The translations under genes and the position numbers were made by a program. 64,000 bases of DNA from Allolobophora icterica (Eukaryota > Annelida > Clitellata > Crassiclitellata > Lumbricidae). Location of the stretch: NCBI GenBank assembly GCA_963556255.1, contig OY744608.1, positions 7,039,523 to 7,103,522 of the forward strand, given 5' to 3'. Shown piece by piece: positions 3,186 through 61,430 of the stretch. The notes beneath the pieces are model-generated. The model saw only the letters and a list, made by a program, of their open reading frames with translations, had not been told where the DNA came from and searched no databases. Each line of letters opens with the position of its first letter. The first letter of the stretch is position 1.

Positions 3186-3189
3186 TAAA

Positions 3190-30213: not shown

Positions 30214-32502
30214 TGTAAGAACATAGAATATTCTCACATGGGAAAGGATTTAAAATTTTTAAAATGCAATATTCCTCTTTAATAAATATTATAAAGTAAT
30301 CACAAATATTAGAACCAGGGTGTGAGGCGGCTGCGCGATGTGCGTGGGCAGAACTAGCGGTTCAGGAGAGAGAGATACGATTGGCTAGCCTATTTCAGAT
30401 ACGACGTCCGTCAAGTCCACGTATGATGGTTTCACGGGGCAGCTGCCACCGATAATTAACATGCAAAAGAGATGCAGGGGAAGTTACTTGGACCGCCCAT
30501 CCAGGGTAAGGCACCGCGGCCGGCGAGGGTTACAGACAGCTGTCGATCGCTGTTTAGGCACGCTTAAGGTAAACAAGAGGTAATGATAATGGTCAGCCTA
30601 TCAAGTAGAAGGGGTGGGACGGTCAACTAAACGGTCGAACACTTAATCGGGCCAGAGAGGAGCTAAATAAAAATAGCTCTGATTGGACAGCAAGAAGTCC
30701 GTCTACAGAAACACTTTAGAAGATTTTACTATAAAAACTCATGCAAGGAGAAATAAGTCAGTCTGCGGCGGAGAAGAATCACGGAGAACCTCAACGGACG
30801 AAGAAGGAAGAAATCAACGGACGGAGAAGAACTAACGAGTTCACTCCAAATGCTACGAGAGTCGGACGCAGAGGACCTCGAGCAACTGAGCAGAGCCAAC
30901 ACGAAGCTCACTCAACCTGACTTAAACGAGTCTGCTGCGGAGGAGAATCAACCACGGAACAAGCTCAAGGACGGAAGGAGAACCTCTACCGGGAAAAGGA
31001 AGCGGACGCCGAAGGACGCGAGCAACTGAGCAGAGCCAACACGAAGCTCACTCAACCTGATACTAGAGAAGACTGGAAGAATCTACAGCCGAAGGCGATA
31101 GACGTCTACGTAGCAGAACCTTTGGACGTTCACTACAGACGAGGATCGACGGCGCCTCCTGTCGACGGCGTCAGGAAGCTTCCGGTACAGAGAGACGAGC
31201 ATTCATCCGCGTTGACGAGACCAGACAATTCATCTGGAGACGATCAATTCATCCGTGCTGAGACGAGAACGAGTCCATTCATCCGCGTTGACGAGACCAG
31301 ACAATTCATCTGGAGACGATCAATTCATCCGCGCTGACGAGACGAGACAATTTATCCGTTGCAGAGAGACGAGTCAATTCATCCGCGCTGACGAGACCAG
31401 ACGATTCTTCCGTTGCAGACGAGACCAGACAATTCATCCGTTGCAGAGTACGAGACGATTCATCCGTTGCTGACGAGACGAGACAATTCATCCGTTGCAG
31501 AGAGACGAGTCAATTCATCCGTTGCAGAGTACGAGACAATTCATCCGCGCTGACGAGACGAGACAATTCATCCGTTGCAGAGAGAGGAGTCAATTCATCC
31601 GTTGCTGACGAGACGAGACAATTCATCCGTTGCAGACGAGACGAGACAATTCATCCGTTGCTCTGACGATCCATTCATCATTCTGACGAGACGAGACGGT
31701 TAATTCATCCACAGCTCTCGGGACGTGCATTTTTCCGAGACGTATCATTCAACAGTCCAGCCACCATTCAGTCTATACCTTCATTCATCTGCCGCTTCAG
31801 CGAGTGAGTCACCTAAACGACTCCTATCAAGCCTGGAAACCCTGCGTCTGTCTTCATCGTGAGCGAATTCCGATTCATAGCTTCCAAACCGTTACGTAAG
31901 TCGTATTCGTAATATCTGATCTGCTAAAGTCGTCAACACGTCCACAAGGCCGCCATTGTGACCTACATCGCGTATCTACGTCTGCATTTCTGTCCATCCA
32001 GGGCCGACGAGCGAACGGCCTACGCGAAGCAACTCGAGCGACGTCTAGCGGTAACCCCTCTCCACAGTCACCGACGACAGCGACGCCTAGCGGTAGTCTG
32101 TGTATGCGTCTGCGATTGGTGAATAACCCCTCCTCCACACGAGCCCGGCACCTCGATTGCATTACCAATCAATCTGATCACTGCGGTATATAGATGTCTG
32201 TAGCAATTAAACTCCACCTAATTAGTGAATAAAAGAGTATATTGAAAAGCGAGCCAACGTGGAATTCACTGCAGCTCGAAGATTATAGAAATTGGGCCAT
32301 ATTCAAATTCTAAATCCTATATTTATAAAACCGAAGCTGTCTGATCGCATAAAAGCTCATTCTTAGTGTAAGAACAGACCTTCCTCCCACACTTAATTAA
32401 GTAAGACAATACTGGACCAATTAGTTCTTTCTAGCGTATGTTTGTCGTGAATAAAAGTATAATCACATAAGACGCAGAGCCTTATCTTAATTGGATCTAA
32501 AC
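30214..32502 (+). mobile_element. Second LTR copy and leader of the gag-protease element
   Basis: Repeats 18216-20504 at an offset of 11,998 bp with no difference noticed, including the minisatellite (31193-31698). Placed after the polypurine-like tract, it serves as 3' LTR. Because leader and gag sequence follow it, it is also the 5' LTR of a second, broken copy: an LTR-interior-LTR-interior tandem. Confidence 0.8.
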
Positions 32503-33264
32503 ATGTCTCGCAGCAGCGTGAGCTCTTTAGATAGAAATAGCAAGGATGCGGGTAGTGAAAGTAGTGACAACGAGGTAGGCCCCAATCCACCTGTGATGCC
32601 ACGGACACCTCCAGAAGACCCGTTGTCCCGCATCTATGAGGTGGTGAGTCATATAGCCTCTAGTTTAGCGGATGTGTCTGTACAACAGAAGTCCATGGAT
32701 TCTAGGATGATGTCTATAGGCCATCAGCAATCGGCCCTTTGCGAGTCAGTAGAGGACTTGACAAAGCGATTGAGCACAATGGAAGAAGTAAGAAGTCCCA
32801 TTTTTGGTTTTAAGGACCCTAATTACTCACTCCAAGTAATTGCAGACCAATCGGCTGCCACGGCCAAAGCCACTCAGGAACACCACCCCTCGTCTGCCTT
32901 TGCGAGTACAGGTGCAAGCCTGGATAGAGGAGTTCTCGCATTGGACAATAACGGCCTTAGAAGGAGCGAAAGATTACGAGAAAAGCAATTAAGGCTTGGT
33001 AACGTGATAGCCCAGAATGATTATATAGCGCCTAGAAATACTCCCGAATCACCCCCTCCGGCTCTGAGGTATGAGAATCAATCAAGATACATTCCCCAAC
33101 CTGAATTAGCAACTCAGGTGTGTCTTGAGAGATTCAATCCATCTAGGTTCGATGACGTCGTGGACAACCAAATGGGCGGAAGTACGGTAGCAGGACGGGG
33201 AGCTGGCTTCCCTTCCAACAGGGAGACAGTGTCCTGGCTACCGGAAACAACAAACTTCCACACT
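32503..33264 (+). pseudogene. Truncated gag N-terminus of the tandem copy
   Basis: Repeats the first 254 codons of the gag-protease frame at 20505 without change, then stops abruptly at 33264 (…ACTTCCACACT), where a non-LTR fragment begins. No capsid or protease is left. Confidence 0.85.
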
Positions 33265-39313: not shown

Positions 39314-40079
39314 TGTCACAAAATGGTCTGTATAACTAAAGACCTTTACCTGAGGATAGCACACCTGTAAGGTTAGGCTAGATTGAGGTAGGCGGAGACG
39401 ATCGCATGAACAATTAGAGGATGGGTTAGAGGTCAGTTAGAAGACAGTCGGACAGAGATAGTCGGTGAAGACAGATGGTCCGCTGAGGGGAATCCGAAGA
39501 AGACGTCGGGGAAGGTCGGAAGGACGGACGGACTGACGACGTAGTGGACGGCAGGAAGTTTTAGCTTCGTCGTAGCTTCGTATTCCCCGGTGAGGGTGAT
39601 ACACAAGTGGTGAAGAGGACGCTGGTGGCGACGTGGTGTCTGGAACGTGGTGACGTGGAAGACGTGGTGTCTGGAACGTGGTGACTGGAACTGGAACCTG
39701 GTGTCTGGAACGTGGTGACGTGGAAAACAGGATGACGTGGAGGAGACGAACCTGTTGAGCGACGGATGGTTTGATCCAAGTTTCGAGTATCGACGGGTGT
39801 GACCAAGTTTAGAGAGCGCCTCTTAAGCAGAACAATTGGGAGGGTTGTGGGTTTTGTGTTTTTCGTGTTTTGGTTATGTTGAGTGTGGGTTTGGCACTCC
39901 AGACTGTGTGTATACTTTTGAACTGTAGAGTAGGTTAGTAGGTTGTATTTTTCATGTTAACCCAAAAGAAGGGATCCATTTTGGAACTTTGTACATATAA
40001 TGTAAATAAATATGTTTTATTTTCTTCTTTTATCTTTGAGTTAGAATAAGTTAGAAAACTAGAATAAGAACTCGTGACA
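39314..40079 (+). mobile_element. LTR 1 of Gmr1-like element I (5' LTR)
   Basis: A 766-bp LTR, TGTCACAAAA…CTCGTGACA. It is matched at an offset of 4,094 bp by LTR 2 (43408-44167) with only two substitutions noticed (one each near 39434 and 40010). Two bases after it comes TGGCGACCCTGACGAG (40082-40097), a primer-binding site that ends in the complement of a tRNA CCA terminus. Confidence 0.93.
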
Positions 40080-40081
40080 TT

Positions 40082-40097
40082 TGGCGACCCTGACGAG
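40082..40097 (+). other. Primer-binding site of element I
   Basis: TGGCGACCCTGACGAG, complementary to a tRNA 3' end (…GGTCGCCA). The same sequence follows LTR 3 at 47502. The tRNA was not identified. Confidence 0.75.
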
Positions 40098-40254
40098 ACC
40101 CTTCTTTTGTAGGGTAGATGTTTGTAGGCCTATAGTAGGATAGGGTGATAAAACTTTGCTTGGGTATAGCAGGATTGTATAAAGTAGTAGTCCTATAGAA
40201 AATAATAGGATTGAATTACATTTTTTTTGGCTTCTGTTGAATTGTAAATTTGAA

Positions 40255-43230
40255 ATGGCAACTGTGCATGAACTAAAGGAAGTAGGGGAGAGTATGGGTT
40301 TACAAGGGGATTCCTTGCAGGCGTTTATTAAGGAACAGCAGGCAGAGGAGAGGGATAGGAGAAGTATGGAAAGAGAAGAACGAGTAAGGATTTTCGAACT
40401 GGAGAAAATGAGGTTGGAAAAAGATCAAAAGGAATTGGAAGCTAGTTTAGAAAGAGAAAGAATGAAAGCTGACTCGTCGAAAATGTTTCGGTCATCTGGA
40501 GGAAGTAGGGATGATGAGGATGATGGAAGGGAAATATTGATGAAATGTCGGGCGAAAATTCCCAAGATGCCATGTTTTGATGAGGATAAGGATTTCATGG
40601 ATTCATATCTGAACCGCTTTGAGCGTTTCGCACACGCCAGCGGATGGAAACGTTCGGAATGTGCCATTTATCTGAATGCACTCCTCAAGGGAATGGCTCT
40701 GGATGTGTATTCTCGTTTGCCTCCAGAAGAAGCTGAGAATTACGACAGCTTGAAGCAAGCGCTTCTAAAGCGATATCAATTGTCGGAAGAAGGATTCAAA
40801 ACACGTTTTAGACAAGCCAGATCGGAAAAAGGGGAATCACCACCACAGTTCCTTACTAGGTTGGATAGCTACCTACAACGATGGATTGAATTGTCAAAAG
40901 TAACTCAGAGCTATGAGGGGCTAAAGTTGCTAATGATAAAGGAACAGTATTTGGATGCATGTCCGAAAGATTTAGCTTTGTTTTTGAAGGAACGGGCGCC
41001 TGACAATGTTGCTGATCTGGGCAAGTTGGCTGAACAATATACAGATGCGCACAACGAGAAGGTTTGGATAAGAGAAGAAATTAAGAATCGGACGGATAGC
41101 CAACAACAGTCTGAAGCTGTTAGGAAATGTTACAATTGTGGAAGCACTTCGCATGTGCAGAAGTTTTGTACGGTCGGTAGGAAAGGGGTGACAGTAGGTC
41201 AGCGTAATGGTACGCAGAAGGACAGAAAATGTTTCATATGCGGAAAAGGAAATCATTTGGCCCGCAACTGTTTCATGAACCCAAAAACAGGAGCAATGCT
41301 GACGGCAAGAACTGCGTCTCAAGAAGGATTTGAACAGTTTGAGCACAGGAAGAAAAATCCATCGACCAGTGAAAATAGGTTGGGAAGCGATAATAATGGG
41401 AAGCCACATGCTGAACGAAGAGATTCAGAATCGCAGACAGGCGATCACCACTGTTGTGGAATGATGGCAGCAGGAGGACTGGGGTTGAAATGTGGATGCT
41501 TCTACCCGATTGTGTCTGAGGCGTGTTTCACTCGACATATGTCAGACTCGACTACAAAGATGCCGGTCAGTGAAGGACGACTAGATGGAAACCGCGTTTG
41601 TGTTCTTCGAGATACGGGGTGTTCTACGGTGGTAGTGAAGAAGAGTTTGGTGGCGCCACAACATTTTACCGGACTAAATGAATTTTGTGTGCTGATTGAT
41701 GGGACCGTAAGACAAGTTCCGGTAGCAGTAGTTCCTCTGGAAACGCCATACATTACTGGAATGGTGAAAGTGGTTTGCATGAAAAATCCTTTATATGATG
41801 TCATCATTGGAAACGTTCAAGGAGTTAAGGATACAGTAAGGGAAACACCCGAACCGGAAGAAAAGGAAATTAGAATTCAACAGGAAAACCCTGTGGCTGC
41901 AGTGGTTACCAGGAGCCAGGCTATCCCCATCAAGATTAAACCGCTTACAGCGATGAAGGAAATAGAAACAAATATCTCAAGGAAAGACATGATAGATATG
42001 CAGAAGGAGAAGATGGTGGCGTTCCTTGGGTCGTTGGCTACGGAGCCAGGAATGGTCGGGAACCAGATGCAACAGGTGGAGTTACTTCAAGAAGAGCTTG
42101 CAACACAGCAGAATCAATACGAGCAGTTAATTCAAAAGGGATTAGCCATCTTGGATCGGATCGAACCGGATTCAGCAGATGCAAGCCAGATCAACCAGCA
42201 GATCGAAGAGATCAACATTGGATGGGACAAGCTCAACAGTCGGCTCGGCGAGCGCCAAGCTGGGCTCACTAACATGCTCGAACTGAGCACGGGCTTCTAC
42301 AATGCGCTGCAGGAACTGAGCGAGTGGGTGCCAACCAAGACGGACTTTGTCGAAGGACTTGCGAGTCAAGTTGGAGCTCAGGTGGATGCGCTCACTGAGC
42401 AGAGATTGCTGCTCAAGAATCTGGAGCAGGAGATGAAGTCGAAGAGGCAGTTGATTGAAAAGGCGCAGAACGAATGCCAACAGATGTGCGATGCTGTCAA
42501 AGAACCACTGACAAAGTTCGACTTGAAGAATAAATTCGCCTCCATCGAGAAACCGTTCAAGGACCTCGAAAGGAAAATCGAGGAACGAGAGACTTCGCTC
42601 GACTCCGCAGAACATGAAGGAACCAAGTTCCAATCAGCACTTGATGACGTTATCCAGTGGATTGACACGACAAATCGACGACTCGCCTCACTCGATCCTG
42701 TCTCAGGCGACAAGGAACGACTGAGACAACAAGTCATAGAGAACGAGGCGATCCAAAATGAGATGACATCCCGTGAGCCAGAGCTGCGCCTGCTCTTTGG
42801 AAAAGGCCAGAAGATGGCAGACAGCGTTGACTCGTCCTCCAACCTCGGCAACCGACTGGACTCTACCAAAGCCTCGTGGAACAGAGTGCGCGAAAAAGCG
42901 ACGGAAAAGAACGCAAGGGTGAAGGAGATTTCTAAGCAGGTGGCCTTTGAAAGTCGCAAGTTGTTACCCCGAGAAACGCATTATGCCACGATTGAACGAG
43001 AATGTTTAGCAATCGTTTGGGGGGTTAAGAAATTCGAACAATATTTCTATGGGAAAGAATTCATTTTGGAATGTGACCATCAACCATTGCAATACCTAGG
43101 CCGGTCGCAGTATCAGAATGGTAGGCTTATGCGTTGGGCATTGGCACTGCAACCTTATCGAATGACGTTAAGGTCAATACACGGTAAAGAGAACGTGGGA
43201 GCAGATTTCTTAAGTAGGCATCCGTGTTAA
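40255..43230 (+). CDS. Gag-protease-[spectrin-repeat capture]-RNase H fusion of LTR element I
   Basis: One unbroken frame of 991 residues from ATG 40255. In order: charged coiled-coil N-terminus (1-85); SCAN-like capsid region (about 105-260); two zinc knuckles, CYNCGSTSHVQKFC (about 292) and CFICGKGNHLARNC (about 325); retropepsin with DTGCS (about 454) and VIIGN. Then about 586-895 (42010-42939) has nothing retroviral. It is helical and spectrin-repeat-like, with W-centred helices such as INIGWDKLNSRLGERQ and VIQWIDTTNRRLASLDP, resembling spectraplakins (dystonin/MACF1/Shot). Its third positions are GC-richer than the flanks and it has no introns, so it was probably copied from spliced mRNA. 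At 42940 the frame passes into RNase H (VAFESRKLLPRE, ERECLAIVWG, ECDHQPLQYL, GADFLSR) to the stop. Integrase and reverse transcriptase are missing. The product would be a capsid-protease protein with a cytoskeletal rod. Confidence 0.85.
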   Translation: MATVHELKEVGESMGLQGDSLQAFIKEQQAEERDRRSMEREERVRIFELEKMRLEKDQKELEASLERERMKADSSKMFRSSGGSRDDEDDGREILMKCRAKIPKMPCFDEDKDFMDSYLNRFERFAHASGWKRSECAIYLNALLKGMALDVYSRLPPEEAENYDSLKQALLKRYQLSEEGFKTRFRQARSEKGESPPQFLTRLDSYLQRWIELSKVTQSYEGLKLLMIKEQYLDACPKDLALFLKERAPDNVADLGKLAEQYTDAHNEKVWIREEIKNRTDSQQQSEAVRKCYNCGSTSHVQKFCTVGRKGVTVGQRNGTQKDRKCFICGKGNHLARNCFMNPKTGAMLTARTASQEGFEQFEHRKKNPSTSENRLGSDNNGKPHAERRDSESQTGDHHCCGMMAAGGLGLKCGCFYPIVSEACFTRHMSDSTTKMPVSEGRLDGNRVCVLRDTGCSTVVVKKSLVAPQHFTGLNEFCVLIDGTVRQVPVAVVPLETPYITGMVKVVCMKNPLYDVIIGNVQGVKDTVRETPEPEEKEIRIQQENPVAAVVTRSQAIPIKIKPLTAMKEIETNISRKDMIDMQKEKMVAFLGSLATEPGMVGNQMQQVELLQEELATQQNQYEQLIQKGLAILDRIEPDSADASQINQQIEEINIGWDKLNSRLGERQAGLTNMLELSTGFYNALQELSEWVPTKTDFVEGLASQVGAQVDALTEQRLLLKNLEQEMKSKRQLIEKAQNECQQMCDAVKEPLTKFDLKNKFASIEKPFKDLERKIEERETSLDSAEHEGTKFQSALDDVIQWIDTTNRRLASLDPVSGDKERLRQQVIENEAIQNEMTSREPELRLLFGKGQKMADSVDSSSNLGNRLDSTKASWNRVREKATEKNARVKEISKQVAFESRKLLPRETHYATIERECLAIVWGVKKFEQYFYGKEFILECDHQPLQYLGRSQYQNGRLMRWALALQPYRMTLRSIHGKENVGADFLSRHPC

Positions 43231-43391
43231 GGATGTTGGTTTGGTTTACAAGCAAATTTAGTTGTTTAAGTCGTATGTTGTTTTAAAAGTTGTTAGATTA
43301 ATAGCGTTAACATAGCATTGCATATTTTTTGGTTTATTCGTAGTGCATTTTGTAATTCTTTGAGTGAGAAAAAAAATAAATTTTGTTTCTT

Positions 43392-43407
43392 GAAAGGAGG
43401 GAGGCAA
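43392..43407 (+). other. Polypurine tract of element I
   Basis: GAAAGGAGGGAGGCAA directly before LTR 2, the expected plus-strand primer. An identical tract precedes LTR 3 at 44863-44878. Confidence 0.85.
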
Positions 43408-44167
43408 TGTCACAAAATGGTCTGTATAACTAAAGACCTTTACCTGAGGATAGCACACCTGTAAGGTTAGGCTAGATTGAGGTAGGCGGAGACGATCGCA
43501 TGAACAATTAGAGGATGGGTTAGAGGTCCGTTAGAAGACAGTCGGACAGAGATAGTCGGTGAAGACAGATGGTCCGCTGAGGGGAATCCGAAGAAGACGT
43601 CGGGGAAGGTCGGAAGGACGGACGGACTGACGACGTAGTGGACGGCAGGAAGTTTTAGCTTCGTCGTAGCTTCGTATTCCCCGGTGAGGGTGATACACAA
43701 GTGGTGAAGAGGACGCTGGTGGCGACGTGGTGTCTGGAACGTGGTGACGTGGAAGACGTGGTGTCTGGAACGTGGTGACTGGAACTGGAACCTGGTGTCT
43801 GGAACGTGGTGACGTGGAAAACAGGATGACGTGGAGGAGACGAACCTGTTGAGCGACGGATGGTTTGATCCAAGTTTCGAGTATCGACGGGTGTGACCAA
43901 GTTTAGAGAGCGCCTCTTAAGCAGAACAATTGGGAGGGTTGTGGGTTTTGTGTTTTTCGTGTTTTGGTTATGTTGAGTGTGGGTTTGGCACTCCAGACTG
44001 TGTGTATACTTTTGAACTGTAGAGTAGGTTAGTAGGTTGTATTTTTCATGTTAACCCAAAAGAAGGGATCCATTTTGGAACTTTGTACATATAATGTAAA
44101 TAAATGTGTTTTATTTTCTTCTTTTATCTTTGAGTTAGAATAAGTTAGAAAACTAGAATAAGAACTC
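43408..44167 (+). mobile_element. LTR 2 (3' LTR of element I)
   Basis: Nearly identical to LTR 1 but missing the last six bases; it joins pol sequence of another copy directly at 44168. It therefore also stands as the 5' LTR of a second, internally deleted element. Confidence 0.92.
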
Positions 44168-44701
44168 ATCCCAAATTTTGCTGCAATTGCTGGACCTTTG
44201 ACCGATTTGACTCGGAAAGGAACTCCTAATGAAGTTGTTTGGGGGGATGTGCAGAACAGAGCATTTGAAGAGCTTAAGGTGCATATTGCGAATCCGCCCG
44301 TGCTTAAGCTGCCAGATTTCAATCGACTGTTTATATTACAGACAGATGCCTCTAATGTGGGTTTAGGCGCTATTTTGATGCAAGAGGGTGATGATGGCAT
44401 GAAGCATCCGGTGGCCTTTGCGAGTCGCAAGTTGCTACCTCGAGAAACTCATTATGCCACGATTGAACGTGAATGTTTAGCAATCGTTTGGGGGGTCAAG
44501 AAATTTGAACAATATTTGTATGGGAAAGAATTCATTTTGGAATGTGACCATCAACCCTTGCAATACCTAGGCCAGTCGCAGTATCAGAATGGTAGGCTTA
44601 TGCGTTGGGCATTGGCACTGCAACCTTATCGAATGACGTTAAGGTCAATACACGGTAAAGAGAACGTGGGAGCAGATTTCTTAAGTAGGCATCCGTGTTA
44701 A
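44168..44701 (+). pseudogene. RNase H end of pol, element II
   Basis: Open frame from the junction to the stop at 44701 encoding the end of a Ty3/gypsy pol: connection segment (FAAIAGPLTDLTRKG), then RNase H with acidic residues in TDASNVGLGAIL, ERECLAIVWG, CDHQPLQYL and GADFLSR. There is no integrase after it; 161 bp later comes the polypurine tract. The same RNase H, about 95% alike by eye, ends the fusion frame at 43230. Ending pol with RNase H fits Gmr1-like elements, in which integrase lies before reverse transcriptase. Confidence 0.88.
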
Positions 44702-44878: not shown

Positions 44879-45328
44879 TGTCACAAAATAGCCTGTATAA
44901 TTAAGACCTTTACCTGAGGACAGCACACCTGTGAGGTTAGGCTAGACTGAGGTAGGCGGAGAAATTTGCATGAACAATTAGAGGATGGGTTAGAGGTCAG
45001 TTAGAAGACAGTCGGACAGAGATAGTCGGTGAAGGCAGATGGTCCGCTGAGGGGAATTCGAAGAAGACGTCGGGGAAGGTCGGAAGGAAGAACGGACTGA
45101 CGACGTAGTGGACGGCAGGAAGTTTTAGCTTCGTCGTGGCTTCGTATTCGTAAGTTTATTAAAGAATATATTTCAGTGGTTTTGGAAACATAAATAACTG
45201 AATAGTGTAAAGAATGTTTGAACTTTCGAAGCGTTCGTGTAGGAACTTTGTTTTGTAAGGGCATATGAGCCTATAATTATATATAGTTAAGACTTTGGAT
45301 TTGTTCTGGAAATAGTTTGATAAATATA
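44879..45328 (+). mobile_element. LTR 3, left part, plus extra sequence
   Basis: Starts TGTCACAAAATAGCC and follows LTR 1/2 to about 45149 with more differences than they show to each other. From 45150 it departs into sequence absent from LTR 1/2 (45150-45328 and, beyond the mariner element, 46708-47006), about 478 bp in all. LTR homology resumes at 47007. LTR 3 is thus either a longer variant LTR or one that received an insertion. Confidence 0.75.
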
Positions 45329-46707
45329 CACTGTGAACGGAAAAAAACCATACCTCTACCATAAATAGGGAAATTAACACCAAATATTGAAAATGTTATT
45401 GAGCTTAAAACTATTTTATTCCAAACTATAATCTCAGATAATAATGCGCTAAAGCAGTTAAAAATTGACGTGCCCGTGACGTCATTTGTAATAAAAACAT
45501 CCGTTACAAAATGGCGTTCAGTGAAGAGGATAGAATCGTAATACAATATTTACGCCAGAATCAGGATTACAGTGCAAAACGTTTTCTTAGGGAATTTCCG
45601 GGTAAAGCATGGAAACTTGGTGGACTACAGTACCTTCTGCAAAAGATTGATAGAACTGGTTCATGCAAGCGTCAAGTGGGCAGCGGTAGACCTCGTACTG
45701 CAAGAAATAACGAAAACATCCAACAGGTGCAAGATCTTGTGTTGAGTCAAGAAGACAGGCCACAAACTCATCTCACACAAAGAGAAATAGCACGAGAGGT
45801 AGGCATTTCTCAAACGTCTGTGAATGAAATTGTGAAGATTGATCTTCGTTTAAAATGTTTTAAGAAACGAAGAGCGACTGAACTTACGGAGGCCAACAAA
45901 CAGGCACGGCTTGAGCGATCAAGGCAGTTGTTGATTCGCTATCCTGCTAACTTAGTACATTTCATTTGGTTCACCGACGAAAAGCTGTTCACTGTTGCTT
46001 CACCTTCAAATAGTCAAAATGATCGCCTGTATGCTGCCCTCGGAACACTGAAGAAAAACATCCCTGCGAGTCGATTGCTACGCACACGCTCGACATTCAG
46101 CAAGACAGTAATGGTTTCGGTCGGTGTGTCGGCGCTTGGCAGAACAGCGATACACTTCGTGGAACCTGGGGTTAAAATTAATGGTGCGTACTACGGTGAT
46201 GTTTTGTTGCTGCAGAAATTGCTACCAGATATCCGAGAGTTGTCTGAATATTATACGTTTCAACAGGATGGTGCTCCGGCACACCGAGCTCGCGATACTG
46301 TTGAACTTCTTACAAACGAAACTCCAGATTTCATACCCCCTACACTTTGGCCTCCAAATAGCCCGGACCTTAATCCCGTGGACTACAAAATCTGGGGTGT
46401 GATGCAAGAAAAAGTTTACAAGACAAAGGTGCGCGATGTCGGAGAACTGCGTGAACGTATAACTCAGGCATGGGATGAATTTGATCAAGCTGTAATCGAT
46501 TCAGCAATTAGTCAGTGGCGAGCGCGTCTTTGTGCGTGTGTTGAGGCCAAAGGAGGATATTTTGAACACACATTATAACTAAAAAATAATAGTTATATGA
46601 TTCATATCCTTTAAACTGAAGTTCCACCACGTTTTATTAAAATATGCAAATTATTACACAAATTATCGTAGTAATAAGAGAGGTATGGTTTTTTTCCGTT
46701 CACAGTG
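45329..46707 (+). mobile_element. Intact Tc1/mariner-superfamily transposon (DD37D type)
   Basis: A 1379-bp element with 29-bp terminal inverted repeats that match perfectly (outer 20 bases CACTGTGAACGGAAAAAAAC; 45329-45357 and 46679-46707) and a TA target duplication (TATA on both sides). It has a single uninterrupted transposase gene. Perfect ends plus an open gene indicate very recent movement. It lies within LTR 3. A deleted relative sits at 62571-63147. Confidence 0.95.
45511..46578 (+). CDS. Tc1/mariner transposase, DD37D
   Basis: 355 residues from ATG 45511, the normal length for this family. An N-terminal paired-like helix-turn-helix region includes SGRPRTARN (about 55) and REIAREVGISQTSVNEI (about 90). 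The catalytic domain has D1 in WFTDEKLF (about 154), D2 in FQQDGAPAHRA (about 253) and D3 in SPDLNPVDYKIWG. By direct count 37 residues separate D2 from D3, so it is DD37D, the spacing of the maT group, rather than DD34E (Tc1) or DD34D (mariner). It would cut and paste the element at TA sites. It has no stop or frameshift and both terminal repeats are intact. Confidence 0.94.
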   Translation: MAFSEEDRIVIQYLRQNQDYSAKRFLREFPGKAWKLGGLQYLLQKIDRTGSCKRQVGSGRPRTARNNENIQQVQDLVLSQEDRPQTHLTQREIAREVGISQTSVNEIVKIDLRLKCFKKRRATELTEANKQARLERSRQLLIRYPANLVHFIWFTDEKLFTVASPSNSQNDRLYAALGTLKKNIPASRLLRTRSTFSKTVMVSVGVSALGRTAIHFVEPGVKINGAYYGDVLLLQKLLPDIRELSEYYTFQQDGAPAHRARDTVELLTNETPDFIPPTLWPPNSPDLNPVDYKIWGVMQEKVYKTKVRDVGELRERITQAWDEFDQAVIDSAISQWRARLCACVEAKGGYFEHTL

Positions 46708-47498
46708 TATATTTACCTATCAAGTGTACGGACTTTCGGCGCGTCTGCGTGACCATACGAGTTTCGTGTACGATACTTGGCTAAGGCATGAGAGTATATA
46801 TATAAGTATATATATATGTGCGTGTATATATATGCGTATGTATATATATATAAGGAATGTATAGAAATAAACTCTGAAATGATGTACAGTATATCGTTTA
46901 GTATAAGTGCTGTATGACTTAGGAAGTGTGTTAAAATTGTGATAACATTGTAGGCCTAAAGTTGCTGTGTTACGTGAAGCTTATAAGGTTACTTGTTTCT
47001 TTAAGCCCGGTGAGGGTGATACACAAGTGGTGAAGAGGACGCTGGAGGCGACGTGGTGTCTGGAACGTGGTGACGTGGAAGACGTGGTGTCTGGAACGTG
47101 GTGACTGGAACTGGAACCTGGTGTCTGGAACGTGGTGACGTGGAAAACAGGATGACGTGGAGGAGACGAACCTGTTGAGCGACGGATGGTTTGATCCAAG
47201 TTTCGAGTATCGACGGGTTTGACCAAGTTTAGAGAGCGCCTCTTAAGCAGAACAATTGGGAGGGTTGTGTCTCTTTTGTTTAGTGTTTGGTTGTGGTTGA
47301 GTGTGGGTTTTGGCACTTCAGACTGTGTGTATACTTTTGAACTGTAGAGTAGGTTAGTATAGGTTGTTTTCATGTTAACCCAAAAGAAGGGTCCATTTTT
47401 GGAACTTTGTACATAATGTAAATAAATATGTTTTTTTTCTTGTTTATCTTTGAGTTAGAATAAGTTAGAAAACTAGAATAAGATAAGAACTCGTGACA
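46708..47498 (+). mobile_element. LTR 3, right part
   Basis: The first 299 bp are the remainder of the extra segment, including TA-rich repeats at 46795-46852. From 47007 (CCCGGTGAGGGTG) the sequence follows LTR 1 to its end at 47498 (CTCGTGACA), and a primer-binding site TGGCGACCCTGACGAG follows at 47502. It thus acts as the 5' LTR of element III. Confidence 0.82.
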
Positions 47499-47573
47499 TT
47501 TTGGCGACCCTGACGAGACAATAAGTTAGATAAGGAAGTCGAACGGCTTGAGCTGGAAAGCAAGCGTCTGCAG

Positions 47574-49628
47574 ATGGAGAGACAATCGGCTGGGCGTGAG
47601 GCGGCATCCTCGTTGGGTACATGTACCTCGTTTCAAGGGCAGTATAGAGTAAAGGGACCCAAGATGCCTGCTTTTGAGGAAGGGAAGGATAACATGGATT
47701 CATACATAACACGGTTTGAGAGGTATGCAGAAGTACAACAATGGGATCGAAGGGAATGGGCGATCTTCTTATCCGCTTTGTTGAAAGGGAGTGCGTTGGA
47801 TGTTTACTCCAGGTTGCCTGCGGAGAAGGCCATGGATTATGACTATTTGAAGGAGGCGTTGCTGAAAAGATTTCAGTTGACGAAAGAAGGATTTAGACGA
47901 AAATTTAGATCGGTGAAGGCGGATGTAGGAGAGACACCGGCGCAATTTTTGGCGAGATTGGAGTCTTATTTGCTGCGATGGATGGCGCTGGCGAAGGTGG
48001 ATGCAACTTTTGAGGGCTTGCGGGATTTAATTGTCAGGGAACAATATTTCAACACGTGTTCCAGTAATCTAGCAGTGTTCCTAAAGGAGCAAGCTCCGAC
48101 CACCTTGGAGGACTTGGCCCGTTTAGCTGAGAATTACCTGGACGCTCATGCTAATGATGCAGCGTCAGGTACTGGTCGGACGGAGGAAGAAGGTAGAGTT
48201 GGGTCGCTAGAGAAAAGCGGGAAGACGTTCCTTCCGAAACAAAACACGGGTCGACGTTGTTTCATATGTGGAAAGGGGAATCATATTTCCACAAATTGTT
48301 TCTATAAGAATCGAACGGGGGTTAGGTCGGTGAACGGTTTTCGATCGGGATCATCGCAGGTTGGGTTTCAGAAAAAGGGGCCGCAGGCCAATGGTTCTAT
48401 ATCTGGAGAGGTGGATTCTTCAAGAAGACAACAAGAAAGAGAGGGACAGTTACGGGAAACTGAGTCGGCTCGATGTGTGGAACATCGGTGTGGGGCAGTA
48501 ATGGCTAATGAGGTTGAATTAGTTTGTGGTTGTAAGCTCCCGGTGGTGGCGTGTGCGTCGCATACCCGGAGAAATTTGATGCCAGTAGTGGAAGGATTGT
48601 TGGGTGAACGAAAGGTGGAAGTGTTGAGAGACACAGGTTGTTCCACAGTAGTGGTAAAGACTGAGTTGGTGAGAAAGGAACAGTTCACAGGGGAACAAAC
48701 GTGTGTATTGATCGATGGGACGGTTCGCCGGGCACCTATGGCAGTGGTCGATTTGATTACGCCGTACTTTAGTGGATCTGTGAGGGCTTTGTGCATGAAG
48801 CAGCCCCTGTATGACGTTGTAATTGGGAATATTCCGGGAGCAGAAGATTCAAGTCGTGTACCTGTACTCAATGATGGGATGACAGGAAATAATGACAGAC
48901 AGGAGTTGGTAGAGGAAAGTCTGGTAGTGGAAACTAGACGACAGAGGGCTAGTAAATTGAAGGCGGTACCATTGAGGATACCTGGCCACGTAGGTAGCAA
49001 TGTATTGCGGGGAGAGCTGATGAAGGAGAACAAGGTAGATGAATCAGAGGAGAACAAGGTAGATGAATCAGAGGAGGACAAGGTAGATGAATCAGAAAAG
49101 GACAAGGTAGATGAATCAGAGGAAAACAGGGTAGATGAATCAGAGGAAAACAAGGTAGATGAATCGGAGGAGAACAAGATAGATGAATCAGAGGAGAACA
49201 AGATAGATGAAGCAGAGGAGAACAAGATAGATGAAGCAGAGAAATACAAGATAGATGAATCACAGGAGAACAAGATAGATGAATCAAAGCAAGACGCGCT
49301 AGATGAATCAAAGAAAGATGCAATAGATGCCTCTAATGGTTGTGTTTTGCTTCAGGAGAATGATGAGTGGCTTAAACATCCCGGGGCTTTTACAAGTAGA
49401 AAATTGCTCCCGAGGGAGGCGAGATATGCGACACTAACAATTGAAGAGATGTTTATTATTGTATTGTCACATTTTGTATTGGAGACGGATCATCGACCTT
49501 TTCAGTATATGGGGAAGTCCCAGCACCAAAAGGGTAGATTGGTAAGATGGGCGCGGTCTCTCTCCATCCATATCGTTTCACTATTCGAGAAATTCGGGGA
49601 AAAGACAATATCGGAGCGAAGTATTTAA
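47574..49628 (+). CDS. Gag-protease-acidic repeat-RNase H remnant of LTR element III
   Basis: 684 residues from ATG 47574; the homologous frame is open upstream to about 47519, where it abuts the leader, so the N-terminus is truncated against element I. Contents: SCAN-like capsid region (about 25-180); one zinc knuckle, CFICGKGNHISTNC (about 229); retropepsin-like DTGCS (about 353) and VVIGN. Thirteen 8-residue acidic repeats based on ENKVDESE follow (about 484-586, 49027-49320). It ends in a corrupted RNase H stretch that keeps TSRKLLPRE, ETDHRPFQYM and GRLVRWA but not the glutamate motif or GADFLSR. Integrase and reverse transcriptase are absent, with the acidic repeats in their place. Not a functional element. 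Confidence 0.82.
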   Translation: MERQSAGREAASSLGTCTSFQGQYRVKGPKMPAFEEGKDNMDSYITRFERYAEVQQWDRREWAIFLSALLKGSALDVYSRLPAEKAMDYDYLKEALLKRFQLTKEGFRRKFRSVKADVGETPAQFLARLESYLLRWMALAKVDATFEGLRDLIVREQYFNTCSSNLAVFLKEQAPTTLEDLARLAENYLDAHANDAASGTGRTEEEGRVGSLEKSGKTFLPKQNTGRRCFICGKGNHISTNCFYKNRTGVRSVNGFRSGSSQVGFQKKGPQANGSISGEVDSSRRQQEREGQLRETESARCVEHRCGAVMANEVELVCGCKLPVVACASHTRRNLMPVVEGLLGERKVEVLRDTGCSTVVVKTELVRKEQFTGEQTCVLIDGTVRRAPMAVVDLITPYFSGSVRALCMKQPLYDVVIGNIPGAEDSSRVPVLNDGMTGNNDRQELVEESLVVETRRQRASKLKAVPLRIPGHVGSNVLRGELMKENKVDESEENKVDESEEDKVDESEKDKVDESEENRVDESEENKVDESEENKIDESEENKIDEAEENKIDEAEKYKIDESQENKIDESKQDALDESKKDAIDASNGCVLLQENDEWLKHPGAFTSRKLLPREARYATLTIEEMFIIVLSHFVLETDHRPFQYMGKSQHQKGRLVRWARSLSIHIVSLFEKFGEKTISERSI

Positions 49629-55081: not shown

Positions 55082-55225
55082 ATATGGTATCAAAGTACTT
55101 GCCAAAGTCCATGAATAATATTCATGGACTTTGGCAAGTAGCCTACTTTGATACCATATACGATTTCGGTAAGCGAATACCCATCCAACAAATTATGTTG
55201 GATGGCTATTCGCTTACCGAAATCG
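55082..55225. repeat. Two adjacent fold-back palindromes
   Basis: Palindrome 1 pairs 55082-55117 with 55119-55159 (36 bp, with a 5-base GCCTA bulge). Palindrome 2 pairs 55161-55190 with 55196-55225 (30 bp, one mismatch, 5-base loop). At the same place copy A (about 2793-2866) has only the outer halves joined directly (…CATGAATA then TGTTGGAT…). Copy B thus carries 78 extra bases made of the reverse complements of its two flanks. Confidence 0.93.
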
Positions 55226-55299
55226 CTTTGAATAAGGAATAAAGAAATGAACCGTAGAGTATAACGGTTCCCTATTCCCAGTTAAACTTAAAGGTGCCT

Positions 55300-55570
55300 C
55301 TTTTCATGATGGGGCTTGGAGAAGCGCTTATTTTCTTTCAAAGGCCTTTGGACTGGCAGTGGGTGAATCACATGGTCTCCGAAATGGGACCAGCGCATTG
55401 TTGGACCCACTGTTTACTGCAAAGCTTACGCCAGTTCCAAAATCTATTGCTCGGTGACAGAGGCACGTGTGCGTAAAAAAGTCGAATGGGGTCGTTACAC
55501 GGAATCGAACTCAAAACCGTCTGACAAGTGATCAAGTGTGTTATCGATAGAACCCGTATCTCACAATTAA
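55300..55570 (-). repeat. tRNA-derived SINE in ZNFX1-B intron 2
   Basis: Same SINE at the same place as 2955-3185 in copy A, with more substitutions in the B box (GAGTTCGATTCC retained). Confidence 0.72.
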
Positions 55571-56115
55571 ACTTAGTAGGTGTAGCTCAAACTTAATCAA
55601 GACTCGAGAGTAACAAATCGAAAGGTAGACTTCTAATAAATGTCTTGATCATTAGCGAGGCTGTGTGGGAACGTTGGATGTTGTGACTGAAAACTCCGTC
55701 AACCTTTCTCAGTGTTAACATATACGTCCACCGATAGGAGAGTCGCACTCTGGGCATTTACTGTCGTCGACGGCCGCACCACAATCTCCGATCGCATAAA
55801 CGTGGTCTGGAACTGCAAGAGCCGTACATAAGACCCATCGAGCGACGAAGATTTAAATGGGTTGATATCTGACTGAAATGCGACAGAACGTCTTCTGCGC
55901 AAGATTGTAAATTTGTGGTAAAGTTTTGACTATAACGGGCAAATACAGACAAGAGAATATCTCTAGAAAACCCTTGTAATCTTCGGTCATGACATAGGCT
56001 ATCATCTGTGAATCGAATATCTGGAGTGCTTTTCCCATAAAACACAAAAGTTAGAAAGAAAATTTTAAAACCTTTTATAACTTTATGCAGGATACACAAA
56101 TTGTAATATACTCAC

Positions 56116-59100
56116 TATTTGGACACTTGAACCAGTGACCTTGTCCCATGCCCATGGCTGCAACGATCTGTACCCTTTCCTGGTCCGATATTCCAAGACC
56201 CCCAAGCAACGGTTGTAGCTCATTGGCTACCCGTTTAGCCTCAGCTTCAATGACATTCGTTAAAGGTTGACCGCTTCGAAGCCGTTCTAGGCTTTGGAGG
56301 AACCTCCGGCGTGCTTCTTCAGATACTCCGGGATTACTGCCTGTGTTGAGTTTGCCCTCCAGCTGAATGTACTTGACAAGCAGACCAAACCTCGTCAGTT
56401 CGAATCCGGCTTCCCGCAACTCCTGATCGCTGAATCGAACTCTCTGCCGCAGAAGCCACGACTGTATAGGGTCCATCTCTGACTTGAGCGCATACAGTTT
56501 TACTCTGACTTGCGCATTAGTCGTCTCCCTGATAACAGCGTCCACCTTTATCTTCCAGGCTGTTACATGTTGCAAAAAATTCACGACGTTCTCAATGCAA
56601 CTCACCTCATCGGTTGCAAGGTCAGGACCGTTAAGTCGGTCCCTGTAGAATTTAGTCTGATCCTCTGCGAATTCCATCAAACGAAGCCGCCCTGCAAGTT
56701 CCTTCTGCATGGCCACGTTCCTTCTCCTGTCTCCCAGGATCACGGCCTTAACTCGTTCGATGTCGCAGAGAAGGGTATTGATGATAGTTCCGTAACGGAG
56801 GTTCCTCCGAATCGTCGTCTTACACCGAGGGCATCGTTTCATTTGGATGTCGTTTGACGCCTCGGTGTCGGTCGCCATGTCCATCCAGTGGTCAAGACCG
56901 TCCACCTCAAAAATGTGTCCACAGTCTTCCAGCTGGACGAAGCGGGCGTCGTCTTCTTCTTCGGTTCCAAAGAAAATCTCAGTGACTTCATCTCTGTGGC
57001 AGATCCTGCACTTCTTCGGACATGGTTCTCCGCAAACACCAATACATCGATGACCGCATCCAAGGCGTTTCGGACAGGGAGCGTCACAGCGAGGACGATC
57101 ACAGGGTTGATGGCACAGCTTGGTACACTGATAATGTTGACACCTCCAATGGCATTGCTCTCGACACGGTTCGCACGAACGTCCACATTCGCGAGGACAC
57201 CTGCTGTGATGACATCTGTTCTGGCATCTCTTACTGCAAGGCGGACAGTTCCTGGTACACGGTTCGCTGCATTGGTGACCGCAAACGAGGGTCCGACCAC
57301 AATCAAACTTGCACGGAACGTGCAGCCGGCCCTGCATGCAATCTCCGCACTCGCCTGGACACGGATGGTGGCAATCTAGCAGACTACCACAAGGCTGAGT
57401 GCAATGAATCGACTCTTTCTGCTGGTGACATTTGACACGAACCGAATGTCCACAGCCGAGTTTCTTCTCCACCTTTACCAGACACCGTTTCGTATGTTCA
57501 TCGCCGCATTTCATGTTGCACAAGTGACCACATAGAAGTCGATGATCACACTCACCTTGGCATTTGAAATCATAGGGGAACACACCACACGGAACCTGCT
57601 GCAGGTGACCACAGTTCGGCATCACTCTTTGAACCGTTTGCTTGCACTCACCACAAGGGTCCTGGCAACGCTTCCTACACACGTGATTATTGACACATAT
57701 CACTTTTCGGCATGGCTTCTTGCACCTGTAGTTCGTATGGTCTCTGTCGTAGGAGTGGCAAACCCGTTCACAGGCATGTCCACAGTCCAGTCGGAACCCA
57801 CACGGTCGCAGACACCCTCCTTCCGGTACCTGGTCGAAGTCTTTCGCGCAGTGGACAACGATCCGGGCTTCCTGAGGGTGATTCTGGCAACAGAGAGTCA
57901 GTTCCTCCCCGAAATTACCCATAAGCCTCGCTTTCTGGGTTATCTTGCTCCAAAGCTCGCTGTGTTTTGCAATGTGGTCGAAATCTCCGATCACAAACAA
58001 TCCCTTCTTGGCACGAGACATCGCGACACAGGCTCGATTGTCGTCCTTGACAAACCCTATCTTCCCAATTGAGTTGCTTCGAACAAGAGACAAGAGAACG
58101 ATGTCGTTTTCCTCGCCTTGGTAATTGTCGACCGGACATACGCGAACCCCTTCGAACTGTTCTTTCGGCATGAGACGTTTGAACAGGAACATCTGACCCG
58201 TGTAAGGGGTGAGTATTGTAACCTGGCTGGGGTGGTAGCCCTGTAGGAGTAAATACCGACACAGTGCGACAACAAAAGTGGCTTCGTGGTAGTTCGAAAC
58301 ACTCTTCAGCTCCTCGTCTTTAAGTTCTTCCTCGTCGTGGTTGATCAGGAACAGATTAGTTTCGACACCCTTGATGTCCTCATAGAGTTTAACGGTGTCG
58401 TGATCTTTAAGCTCTGGGTAGATTAAGCGCACGAGTTCGGCAATCTCAGGTCGCATTCGATGCTGGTTTTCGAGTGTTTCGAAAGGTAGTTCATTCATAA
58501 CAAGTCTCTCGAACAGCGAGTATTTGAGGGCATACTCTTCGGCCAGCTTGTAGACATTTGCACTCGGTCTCAACTGCTTGTGATCTCCGATCAGGACCAG
58601 GTGCTCGCAGCCAGAGCTCAACGTTGTGATGACGTGGGCTTCCAAGACCTCAGCCGCTTCCTCAACGATGACGATTTTCGGACTGATTTGGCGGAGGGTA
58701 TTCTTGTAACGTGCAGCTCCAGTTGTCGTCATACCGATTACGTTCATAGTCTGCATGATGGCCCTATCCTCGTCCTCGAGTATCTCCCGTAAGCGATCAG
58801 CAGCAATCTGAAATTGCGTCTCACATTCCAGATTATTCTCCTTTAGGTCCTTCTTGTACAGACTGACCCAGTAGCGATACAGTCGCCATCTATCGGCAAG
58901 GTTCATGCCCCAGAGATTTCGGACGCGACGCGTTTCCTCTTCTGGCATGACGTCGGTGCTTCTCAGCCCTCGTTGCATCCGCTCACGTCGCTTCTTCTTA
59001 TTGACTCTCTGGACTTGCCACTCTCCATCTACTTCCGGCAGATTGTCGAAGTCGACGGCCAATCGCTGGTTGGCCTGCTCCAGATTTCTCCGACGCCTCG

Positions 59101-61430
59101 CCTCCTCTTGGTGTCTCCTCAGAGCCAGCTCGTCGTCTTCCAACTCCAGTAGCCTCTCGGCCTCAATTGCAGCCACATCGTCTTCGATCTCGATTCTCTC
59201 AGCCGGAGCTTCAGCAGGTGCTTCGACAGGTGCATCAGCGGGTGCGCCCTCACCACCTTCAACATTTGCATCAGCTTCAACAGCTGGCTCCTCTTCCATG
59301 TAAAGCATCTCGCCCAGTCCTAGCCAGCCTGGAAGATAGGAAGGACCTAGACCCGAAGATTTATTACTGAAAACACCTCCTTGTTCCCCTTGCTCTAGGT
59401 GTACTCTTTCAGTCAGTGCCATATAGTGATCGTCGGACATTAAATCTTCGAGGATTTTCTCGTGTATCAGACCTCTTTCGGTGCCGTCTATCAAAGCAGC
59501 CGTTTTCTCGATTTCCACCTGCCATTTCTCCATCTCCTGCCGGATGTCCATGCGTGCGTGAAAGATGGCTCTAGGCACGCTCCTCATTTCTCTCACCTTG
59601 CGACGCAACTCCGAAAGTAGAAAGCCTTTCATTTTCTCGTTTTTGCTTCTCCCGCCGACCCTCACTATTCCGGATTTCAGAAACCTGGAAATTCCCTCAA
59701 GGAACTGATCGAGAGCGTGGTTTGTATAGCAGACTACAAGTACCGGGGAATTGTCGGTTCCCCTCGGATTCCAGACCCTTCGATTTAGATATAGTGCTTC
59801 CACGATCTTTAGTCCAATGTGCGTCTTACCGGTTCCAGGAGGACCTTGTATGATGGTCAGCTCTCGCGTAAGAGCAGCCTGGATTGCACGCAGCTGGGAG
59901 TCATCAAGATGTAAGGTTTCAGCAGTAGGCCAGCGGCGAATCTGGAGAATCGGAAGAGCCGAGAATGGGGTTATTCCATAATCTTCATCGCTGTCATCAT
60001 CGCTGTCGTGTTGACGAAAAGCAGGTGGCCGATGACCGTCAATCAAAGGCTGGATGTTGTATGTGGGCTCGGCTGCTGTGAGCAGATATCGAGGAGGATT
60101 TACTGTTGCTTCGCATTTGATGATGTTTTCTCTAAATGGAATGTCTATTTCCTCCATAGTCTGGAGAGCTTTAAGAACGTGCCTATATGCCTCGAAGTAG
60201 GCGGACGTTTCCACCATGAGGAATCTCTCGTCAGGCTGGATGCGACGAACCGCATCTGGATCCACTTCGAACTTGACCTGGAGATATCCTTCCTGCAACA
60301 TCTCCGGTTTTCGATCAGCCACAGTAGCGATGTAGATGGTGTTGAACTCATCCTTTGATAGACACAACAGCGACCCATATATCAGTCGCTTACTGTAGCG
60401 CCAGTTTATCTGCTTCATCCGGGTCACGTCAAACCGGATCTTGTACTGGATCCCCGAGTGAGTACAGATCGGCATCAGAACTGAGACATCATGGTAGACG
60501 CGGATGTCTGCCAGTCGTACCCTTCTGCCAGTCTCTTTCTGGAGGTCAAGGTATTCCCTGATGCCCTGGCGCAGTGGCTGCACAAAGTCTTCACGCAACA
60601 AGCGGAATTGTACGTCGAGGTAGTGACCAACATTCTCGTAGCCACCTTTGATGACGTTGGGTCTGAGAAACGGTTTGCGTCTTGTCATGATATCCTGTTG
60701 GACATCGGGGAAAATCGTCATATCGCGGAAGTTGTCCGGGGGTTGTCTTATATCCTTCACCTGCTGGACATCATTGTTCTCAGATCCTCCTTCGTTTGCT
60801 GCCGCTTCTGCTGTCTTGCGGCCCCTCTCTTTGGCTACGAGTTCCTCTCTTTGAGCACACATTTCATCGAGAGATGTTTCAATCTCGTCATCAATGACTG
60901 CAGTGCTCTGCCTGAGGCCTCGTATCACAAATTCGAATACAATAAGCGTTCCAAGAAAGACCTGGATATTGCCAGGAAAACTTGTCATCAGCTCTTTAAA
61001 GAGAAACAGACTGTCCTTAATCGGCTGACGGAAACTTCTCAACTTTGGTGCCGAAGTCTCCATTTGCATGGCGTTGAGATATTCTGGCAGACCATTTTTC
61101 AGAAACGTGGATGCTCGAATCTTATTCAGCAAGACAATCTTTGCTTGTGGGTTGTTTGTGCTTTTGAGAGCAGTTTTGATAACCGCCAGGATGGCACCCA
61201 TACAGTCCGGCTTCTTCATCAGTGGTTGGTCCTCAAGTGCATGAGGAAAGCCACTTCGTTCTGTGCTGATGATGTTCAGCAACTCTTCAGGGGGGAGATT
61301 AGCCCAATCACGAAGTCGATTGTAACCAATTCTCGGTATAAAATGCTTTGGTTCTCCAATGTCCATGTCTTCATTGTCCGCATCATCGACGTCCATGAAG
61401 TCGTCTCTCGGGCGGCCTTCTTGTCTTGCC
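56116..61430 (-). CDS. ZNFX1: ZNFX1-B large coding exon (helicase and NFX1 zinc fingers)
   Basis: Minus-strand exon of 5315 nt with acceptor TTTAG (61432-61431, phase 2) and donor GTGAGT (56115, phase 1). There is no ATG at its start; exon 1 at 63543-63685 supplies it. Full-length numbering: N-terminal ARM-like region (about 80-260); conserved pre-helicase domain (about 304-525; PFLRPNV, RLLREDFVQPLR, FLMVETSAYFEAYRHVL); UPF1-like SF1 helicase (about 550-1190) with Walker A GPPGTGKT (about 576), VEEAAEVLEAH, GDHKQLRPSANVY, QHRMRPEI, NYQGEENDIVLLSLVRS and VAMSRAKKG. NFX1-type C/H zinc fingers span about 1255-1525. A C-terminal domain ends in SDQERVQIVAAMG…GHWFKC. With its other exons it gives about 1886 residues, near vertebrate ZNFX1 (about 1900). 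ZNFX1 binds RNA: it is an antiviral dsRNA sensor in vertebrates and a germ-granule small-RNA factor in nematodes. All helicase motifs are intact. Confidence 0.96.

What the first reader, a model, noticed from the sequence alone, without database searches (positions are those of the whole stretch)
39314..44167. LTR retrotransposon that appears to have captured a spectrin-repeat host mRNA in frame
Between two nearly identical LTRs, one open frame of 991 codons runs gag, zinc knuckles, protease, then about 310 codons of spectrin-repeat sequence, then RNase H. The middle part has the W-centred three-helix pattern of a spectraplakin rod, different third-position base use and no introns. It replaces integrase and reverse transcriptase exactly, with the frame kept at both junctions (near 42010 and 42940). 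Host-gene capture in this form is well known for transforming retroviruses and rare for LTR retrotransposons (maize Bs1 is the classic case). The two noticed LTR differences in about 760 bp imply a recent event.
Basis: partly seen in the sequence, partly recalled or inferred. Interest (0 to 1): 0.92.

Follow-up and report, generated by a model that had tools for sequence, protein, structure and literature searches.

The report
Retrotransposon carrying a captured cytoskeleton gene
A family of jumping elements in this animal genome carries, in frame inside its own protein, a spliced piece of a cytoskeletal host gene in place of two of its own enzymes, and several copies have inserted and recombined, so an unusual kind of host-gene capture can be followed step by step.

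Summary
Window 39314-44167 is an LTR retrotransposon whose single frame runs SCAN-type gag, zinc knuckle, protease, spectrin repeats, then an N-terminally cut RNase H. The same genome holds the matching gene, a spectraplakin, 4.9 Mb away: the 939-base cargo equals five of its exons, with four GT-AG introns exactly missing. In a cargo-free relative, integrase and reverse transcriptase (Gmr1-like order) occupy the cargo's place; 2436 bases were replaced. Both joints lie on microhomology between element and host mRNA (9 and 6 bases, in phase). This indicates template switching onto a spliced mRNA. Eight cargo copies were found (lower bound); LTR pairs are 99.0-100% alike and 5 have exact 5-base target duplications. 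Copies are mosaics, so the cargo moved between diverged gag backbones. Gag is under purifying selection; the cargo is only weakly constrained. Cargo and resident gene differ by dS about 0.27 with host-like constraint, so the source may have been another lineage or species, or the cargo was once constrained. Insertions are recent; the capture is older. The mechanism is known; this multi-copy, in-frame, recombining form is a new variant.

The parts
39314..40079 (+). 5' LTR, TGTCAC...GTGACA
40082..40099 (+). probable primer binding site (TGGCGACC...; resembles the complement of a tRNA-Arg 3' end, recalled)
   Evidence: sequence; the same 18 bases in 5 of the 7 other copies, small changes in L021 and L022; tRNA assignment recalled
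40255..42000 (+). gag-protease part of the single open frame (SCAN-type capsid 40789-41058, zinc knuckle 41224-41274, protease motif DTGCS 41611-41625, the last read by eye)
42001..42009 (+). left switch point: CAGAAGGAG shared by cargo-free element and spectraplakin exon
42001..42945 (+). captured spectraplakin mRNA piece (5 exons, introns absent); three spectrin-type repeats, the first one partial; ends shared with the element by microhomology
42940..42945 (+). right switch point: GTGGCC shared by host exon and element RNase H
42940..43230 (+). RNase H remnant (profile positions 29-105; N-terminal part lost) and stop
43393..43404 (+). polypurine tract before the 3' LTR
   Evidence: sequence
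43408..44167 (+). 3' LTR, last 6 bases (GTGACA) missing
44168..44701 (+). fragment B: RT end and complete RNase H of a cargo-free relative, followed by an LTR (44879-45149 and 47006-47498, split by an insert)

Best explanation
A Gmr1-like Ty3/Gypsy element (order gag-PR-IN-RT-RH) captured part of a spliced spectraplakin mRNA. Both RNAs were in one particle; minus-strand synthesis began on element RNA, left it in RNase H at a 6-base match, copied about 940 bases of the mRNA, and returned to element RNA at a 9-base match just after protease, skipping IN, RT and the start of RH. Both matches are in phase, so one long gag-PR-spectrin-RH frame resulted (structure shown; order of copying inferred). 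The chimera kept LTRs, PBS, PPT and gag-PR but has no RT or integrase (one rearranged copy, L022, has an integrase region), so it must be copied and inserted by enzymes of cargo-free relatives (inferred; such relatives are in this genome). It then inserted at several loci (shown) and exchanged pieces with relatives by further template switching, so that the same cargo now sits on several gag backbones (mosaic shown; route inferred). The cargo protein most likely does little; the open frame may persist because it was born in phase and the copies are young.
For: Donor gene: cargo matches 5 exons at C7:2151872-2154739; introns of 551, 434, 222 and 716 bp, all GT-AG, are absent from the cargo. Gene identity: EF-hand exons (9.7e-7, 9.3e-8) and GAS2 exons (1.2e-20, 2.1e-5) downstream on the same strand. 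Parent element: two pieces of one cargo-free relative on C4 give PR end-Integrase_H2C2 3e-21-rve 1.8e-12, and RVT_1 1.6e-29-RNase H; CAGAAGGAG at C4:1559465 and GTGGCC at 1561901, so 2436 bp are replaced. Microhomology of 9 and 6 bases against both parents; rough chance at a random joint 3e-5 and 1.4e-3, for equal base use. Mobility: 8 copies with LTRs, pairs 99.0-100% alike, exact 5-bp target duplications in 5 of 8. Left joint at 6 sites with up to 2 mismatches, reversed control 0. Mosaics: L019-L020 differ at 66 of 1916 bases of 5' UTR-gag-PR and 0 of 1392 of cargo-RH-3' end, p 2e-16. Gag dN/dS 0.06-0.35 over all 28 copy pairs; cargo 0.44-0.95 over the 25 of 28 pairs that allow a ratio. Possible helpers: besides B, 9 places with RT-end-RNase H at 94% or more, open frames of 396-1514 codons, five of them above 1490.
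Against: Cargo and resident gene differ by dS about 0.27, more than expected if this very locus was copied shortly before the copies spread. No transcripts, reads or expression could be examined. The window copy itself has no visible target duplication and a cut 3' LTR. L022 has a different left joint and an integrase region, so the history had at least one further rearrangement. Integrase and RT were seen by domain scan in one cargo-free relative only; the other relatives are known by RNase H match and frame length.
Confidence: 0.95

Rival explanations
1. The source was not this genome's own lineage: the element captured the mRNA of a related species' (or a long-separated lineage's) spectraplakin and came in by horizontal transfer or hybridisation.
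For: Differences of all 5 distinct full-length cargo sequences from the resident gene: 40 silent, 16 replacing; differences among them: 15 silent, 35 replacing; p 3e-5. So the stem evolved like a constrained host gene. Third-position GC is alike (0.636 in the gene, 0.623-0.636 in the copies) and the shared third-position changes are balanced, 19 each way plus 2 neutral.
Against: No outgroup was available to place the changes on the host or the element side; past constraint on the cargo would give the same pattern. No second source gene appeared, whose list scores only the best candidates; a dedicated search for one did not complete.
Confidence: 0.3
2. The spectrin part serves the element (for example in Gag assembly or transport on the cytoskeleton) and was kept by selection.
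For: The six full-length cargo copies have no stop, and the deletion shared by L019-L021 is 15 bases, in phase; host-like constraint on the stem. Some cargo ratios overlap those of the protease-linker part (0.16-0.55).
Against: Among copies the cargo has dN/dS 0.44-0.95, above gag (0.06-0.35) over the same copies; L022 and L023 have lost large parts of it. Open frames are also expected in young copies.
Confidence: 0.12
3. A LINE-type processed pseudogene of spectraplakin inserted into the element.
For: Introns are absent.
Against: No poly-A at the right joint, no duplication seen at the joints, an internal mRNA piece only, 2436 bp of pol missing at the same place, microhomology at both joints.
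Confidence: 0.02
4. Assembly artefact.
For: The window copy has an irregular 3' end.
Against: Same left joint at 6 loci on 5 contigs, target duplications of different sequence, copies differing from each other.
Confidence: 0.01

Closest known systems
LTR-mediated retroposition in animals (Tan et al. 2016, as told in PMC5408686 and PMC9674220, passages seen; the paper itself is not held)
   Same: Spliced host mRNA, LTR retrotransposon on both sides, microsimilarity at switch points, template switching.
   Different: Here the fusion is in frame over the whole element, it forms a multi-copy family, cargo, matching gene and cargo-free relative are all in one genome, and cargo is swapped between backbones.
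Maize Bs1 (PMC13317346, passages seen)
   Same: LTR element carrying host gene pieces joined with its own gag-like frame (the gag detail is recalled).
   Different: Bs1 carries pieces of three genes in a plant; here it is one piece in an animal Gmr1-like element with cargo-free relatives at hand.
Gmr1-like Ty3/Gypsy elements (PMC3587641, PMC2774666, passages seen)
   Same: Integrase upstream of RT; SCAN-type gag (that this is typical of Gmr1-like elements is recalled).
   Different: IN and RT replaced by host sequence in the cargo copies.
Non-autonomous gag-only LTR elements such as TR-GAG (search listing only; features recalled)
   Same: LTRs, PBS, PPT and gag without RT and IN.
   Different: Carries a host coding sequence fused in frame; animal.
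Transforming retroviruses with host oncogenes (recalled)
   Same: In-frame gag-host fusion, helper-dependent.
   Different: No envelope and no growth-promoting gene; found as genomic copies.

Membership tests
LTR-mediated retroposition | intronless copy of a multi-exon gene | tested here: met
   4 GT-AG introns absent
LTR-mediated retroposition | LTR element sequence on both sides and LTR-type integration (5-bp target duplication) | tested here: met
   8 of 8 copies with LTR sequence on both sides (L022's 5' LTR incomplete), 5 of 8 with exact 5-bp duplication; the window copy has none
LTR-mediated retroposition | microsimilarity at switch points | tested here: met
   9 and 6 bases against host gene and cargo-free element
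LTR-mediated retroposition | chimeric cDNA made in a particle | not testable with these tools
   inferred from structure
Gmr1-like Ty3/Gypsy | integrase upstream of RT | tested here: met
   PR-IN piece and RT-RH piece of one relative on C4; integrase after protease in L022
Gmr1-like Ty3/Gypsy | RT groups with the Gmr1 clade | not tested
   no reference RT sequences held
Non-autonomous LTR retrotransposon | LTRs, PBS, PPT, no RT or IN | tested here: met
   window copy; L022 is an exception with an integrase region
Non-autonomous LTR retrotransposon | moved by enzymes of a relative | not testable with these tools
   candidate relatives exist
Spectraplakin | spectrin rod followed by EF-hands and GAS2 in the donor gene | tested here: met
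Spectraplakin | N-terminal actin-binding and plakin domains in the donor gene | not tested
   upstream exons were not scanned for them

The most novel reading that the evidence does not exclude
A recombining retrotransposon family acts as a vehicle for a coding piece of a cytoskeletal gene: the piece was taken from the spectraplakin of another species or long-separated lineage, carried into this genome in frame with gag, and passed among different element backbones by repeated template switching.
Probability: 0.25. Interest if true: 0.9.

Novelty: new variant of a known kind. Interest (0 to 1): 0.76.

Why it matters
In the accounts I saw, host-gene capture by LTR retrotransposons appears mainly as retrocopies whose parents must be inferred. 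Here the matching gene, a cargo-free relative, both switch points and eight copies are in one genome, so capture, spread, recombination and relaxation of constraint can each be measured. It is an animal retrotransposon parallel of helper-dependent, host-gene-carrying retroviruses, and raises the question whether such elements carry coding pieces between species.

Tried and rejected
Relatives in viral contigs (cargo, gag-PR, RNase H) and in genome contigs (RNase H): none confirmed. LINE-type insertion: rejected. Assembly error: rejected by the loci. Dating the capture by the LTRs: rejected, they date insertions. The '5 mismatches' that one search prints for the window copy include bases beyond its cut 3' LTR; 2 in 760 is the right count. 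The GC3 change-point alone puts the left edge at 41908, about 90 bases too far left; the exon alignment settles it. Dropped before counts: L020 (cargo identical to L019) and partial L022 and L023 in the table; L022 in the window table. Three of the 28 cargo pairs (among L019, L020, L021) have no replacing difference and give no usable ratio; ratios with L022 and L023 rest on partial, gapped sequence.

Full report
What is there. Window 39314-44167 is an LTR retrotransposon with a 5' LTR (39314-40079), a primer-binding-site-like stretch, one open frame of 991 codons (40255-43230), a polypurine tract and a 3' LTR (43408-44167). The LTRs differ at 2 of 760 positions. Pfam finds SCAN-type capsid, zinc knuckle, spectrin repeats and an RNase H that begins only at profile position 29; protease is read by eye from the DTGCS motif. 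The spectrin segment alone scores 5.6e-21 in three stretches. A single-sequence AlphaFold2 model is all helical (mean pLDDT 74.6, pTM 0.37). Its 12 best Foldseek hits are spectrin, dystrophin/utrophin, plectin and actinin structures, though none reaches E 0.001 (best 0.049) and unrelated helical proteins follow. By sequence the PDB gives dystrophin at 4e-15, spread over many repeats, best single stretch 23.7 bits. A recalled human spectraplakin rod gave a best collinear stretch of 70.3 bits, which served as a lead only.

The donor gene. The whole genome (1.118 Gb, 328 contigs; the window lies on C7 at 7.04 Mb) gave 15 matches to the segment (only the best candidates are scored, so counts are lower bounds). 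Five of them are exons of one locus, C7:2151872-2154739. The cargo follows these exons at 96.3, 94.7, 93.9, 88.8 and 90.5% identity; the four introns (551, 434, 222, 716 bp, all GT-AG) are absent from the element. Downstream on the same strand lie more spectrin repeats, EF-hands and a GAS2 domain. Spectrin rod plus EF-hands plus GAS2 marks the C-terminal half of a spectraplakin (recalled).

The parent element. A search with the RT-end/RNase H of the neighbouring fragment B (44168-44698) found, besides B, nine further places at 94% or more over the full query, with open frames of 396 to 1514 codons (150 of 6455 candidates scored, so a lower bound). In one of them, on C4, two pieces read apart show protease end-integrase (H2C2, rve) and RT-RNase H. 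The other eight were not read. This is the integrase-first order described for Gmr1-like elements (PMC3587641 and PMC2774666, passages seen). In the C4 relative CAGAAGGAG stands at 1559465 and GTGGCC at 1561901. The host exons have the same nine and six bases at the ends of the captured stretch. The element thus lost 2436 bp (integrase, RT, start of RNase H) and gained 939 bp. Because both matches are in phase, the frame runs through.

The family. The other ten matches are the window copy and seven further loci. All seven have LTR sequence on both sides. LTR-pair mismatches: L017 7 of 730, L018 2 of 1238, L019 1 of 764, L020 0 of 1344, L021 0 of 1235, L022 1 of 865 (5' LTR incomplete, beside a gap in the assembly), L023 1 of 706, with one to three gap events in six of the seven. 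Exact 5-bp target duplications: L017, L018, L019, L020, L023 (5 of 8); L021 has a 5-base match displaced by two bases; L022 cannot be judged; the window copy has none. A pattern over the left joint occurs at six sites with up to two mismatches, control zero; L023 has a small deletion there and L022 another joint. The frame is open from gag to the RNase H end in 3 of 8 copies and from gag through the cargo in 4 of 8; others are broken by stops or short indels, or by deletions in the cargo.

Recombination. L019, L020 and L021 have nearly the same cargo-RNase H-3' end (0 to 2 differences in 1392 bases) but differ at 66 (L019-L020), 39 (L019-L021) and 79 (L020-L021) of 1916 bases in 5' UTR-gag-PR (p 6e-17 to 2e-7). 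L018 and L021 are identical over 480 bases of gag and differ at 18 of 240 just before the cargo. LTR lengths also differ. In the protease-end piece, the cargo-free C4 copy is closer to L021 (dS 0.054) than to the window copy (0.132). L022 joins protease and integrase to the 3' part of the cargo. Cargo and backbone have been reshuffled repeatedly; template switching between co-packaged RNAs is the simplest route (inferred).

Selection and age. Gag has dN/dS 0.06-0.35 over all 28 pairs of copies; the protease-linker part has 0.16-0.55. The cargo has dS 0.025-0.103 and dN/dS 0.44-0.95 in the 25 of 28 pairs that allow a ratio, so its constraint is weaker than gag's but overlaps that of the protease-linker part. 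Against the resident gene the cargo copies have dS about 0.26-0.38 and dN/dS 0.12-0.20. Changes shared by five distinct full-length copies against the gene are 40 silent to 16 replacing; changes among those copies are 15 to 35 (p 3e-5). Third-position GC is 0.636 in the gene and 0.623-0.636 in the copies. If the element's stem had evolved as loosely as the copies do now, it could hold only a small share of that divergence. So either the source was a diverged spectraplakin (another lineage or species), or the cargo was constrained earlier. No outgroup was available to decide.

How it works, most likely. Capture by two template switches, loss of IN and RT, then movement with enzymes from cargo-free relatives, which this genome holds. 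Shown: exon structure, gene order in one relative, both microhomologies, multiple insertions, mosaics. Inferred: co-packaging, order of the switches, trans-mobilisation. Function of the fusion protein: no support beyond open frames and the constraint on the stem; weak constraint among copies speaks against a strong role.

Known or new. LTR-mediated retroposition with microsimilarity is known in animals (PMC5408686, PMC9674220: passages seen; the original 2016 paper is not held). Maize Bs1 is the classic plant case (PMC13317346, passages seen). The listings of my ten literature searches (spectrin and spectraplakin named in 39 and 59) showed no title on a spectrin or spectraplakin capture by an LTR element; the library is open-access only, and most listed papers were not opened.

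Noticed in passing
window 44879-49628: A second, diverged SCAN-gag element (C) sits behind an LTR and PBS 94% like the window element's; Pfam finds no integrase or RT there and a 24-bp minisatellite (49024-49329) fills the place before a partly degraded RNase H: apparently a second loss of the same enzymes.
   Followed up: partly
window 44160-44180: The 3' LTR loses its last six bases and is fused to the RT end of fragment B, so the stretch reads LTR-element-LTR-fragment-LTR-element; probably a deletion or recombination between neighbours.
   Followed up: partly
window 45150-47005: Insert within the LTR behind fragment B holding a transposon with 55-nt inverted ends (85% complementary, 45321-45375 and 46661-46715) and a 355-codon frame with a DDE_3 match just under Pfam's cut-off.
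   Followed up: partly
window 18216-21266 and 30214-33264: 3051-bp direct repeat, 100% identical, 12 kb apart, containing the start of a 1251-codon frame with a protease-like motif (by eye) but no Pfam hit; very young giant LTR or assembly duplication.
   Followed up: no
window 2827-8530 and 55194-61685: Two ZNFX1-like helicase paralogues (name recalled; Pfam run on the first only); 2248 bp are 95.0% identical without gaps while flanks are about 87%, as after gene conversion.
   Followed up: no
L022 (C13:5124500-5132000): Cargo copy with an integrase region between protease and a shortened cargo, and a different left joint.
   Followed up: partly
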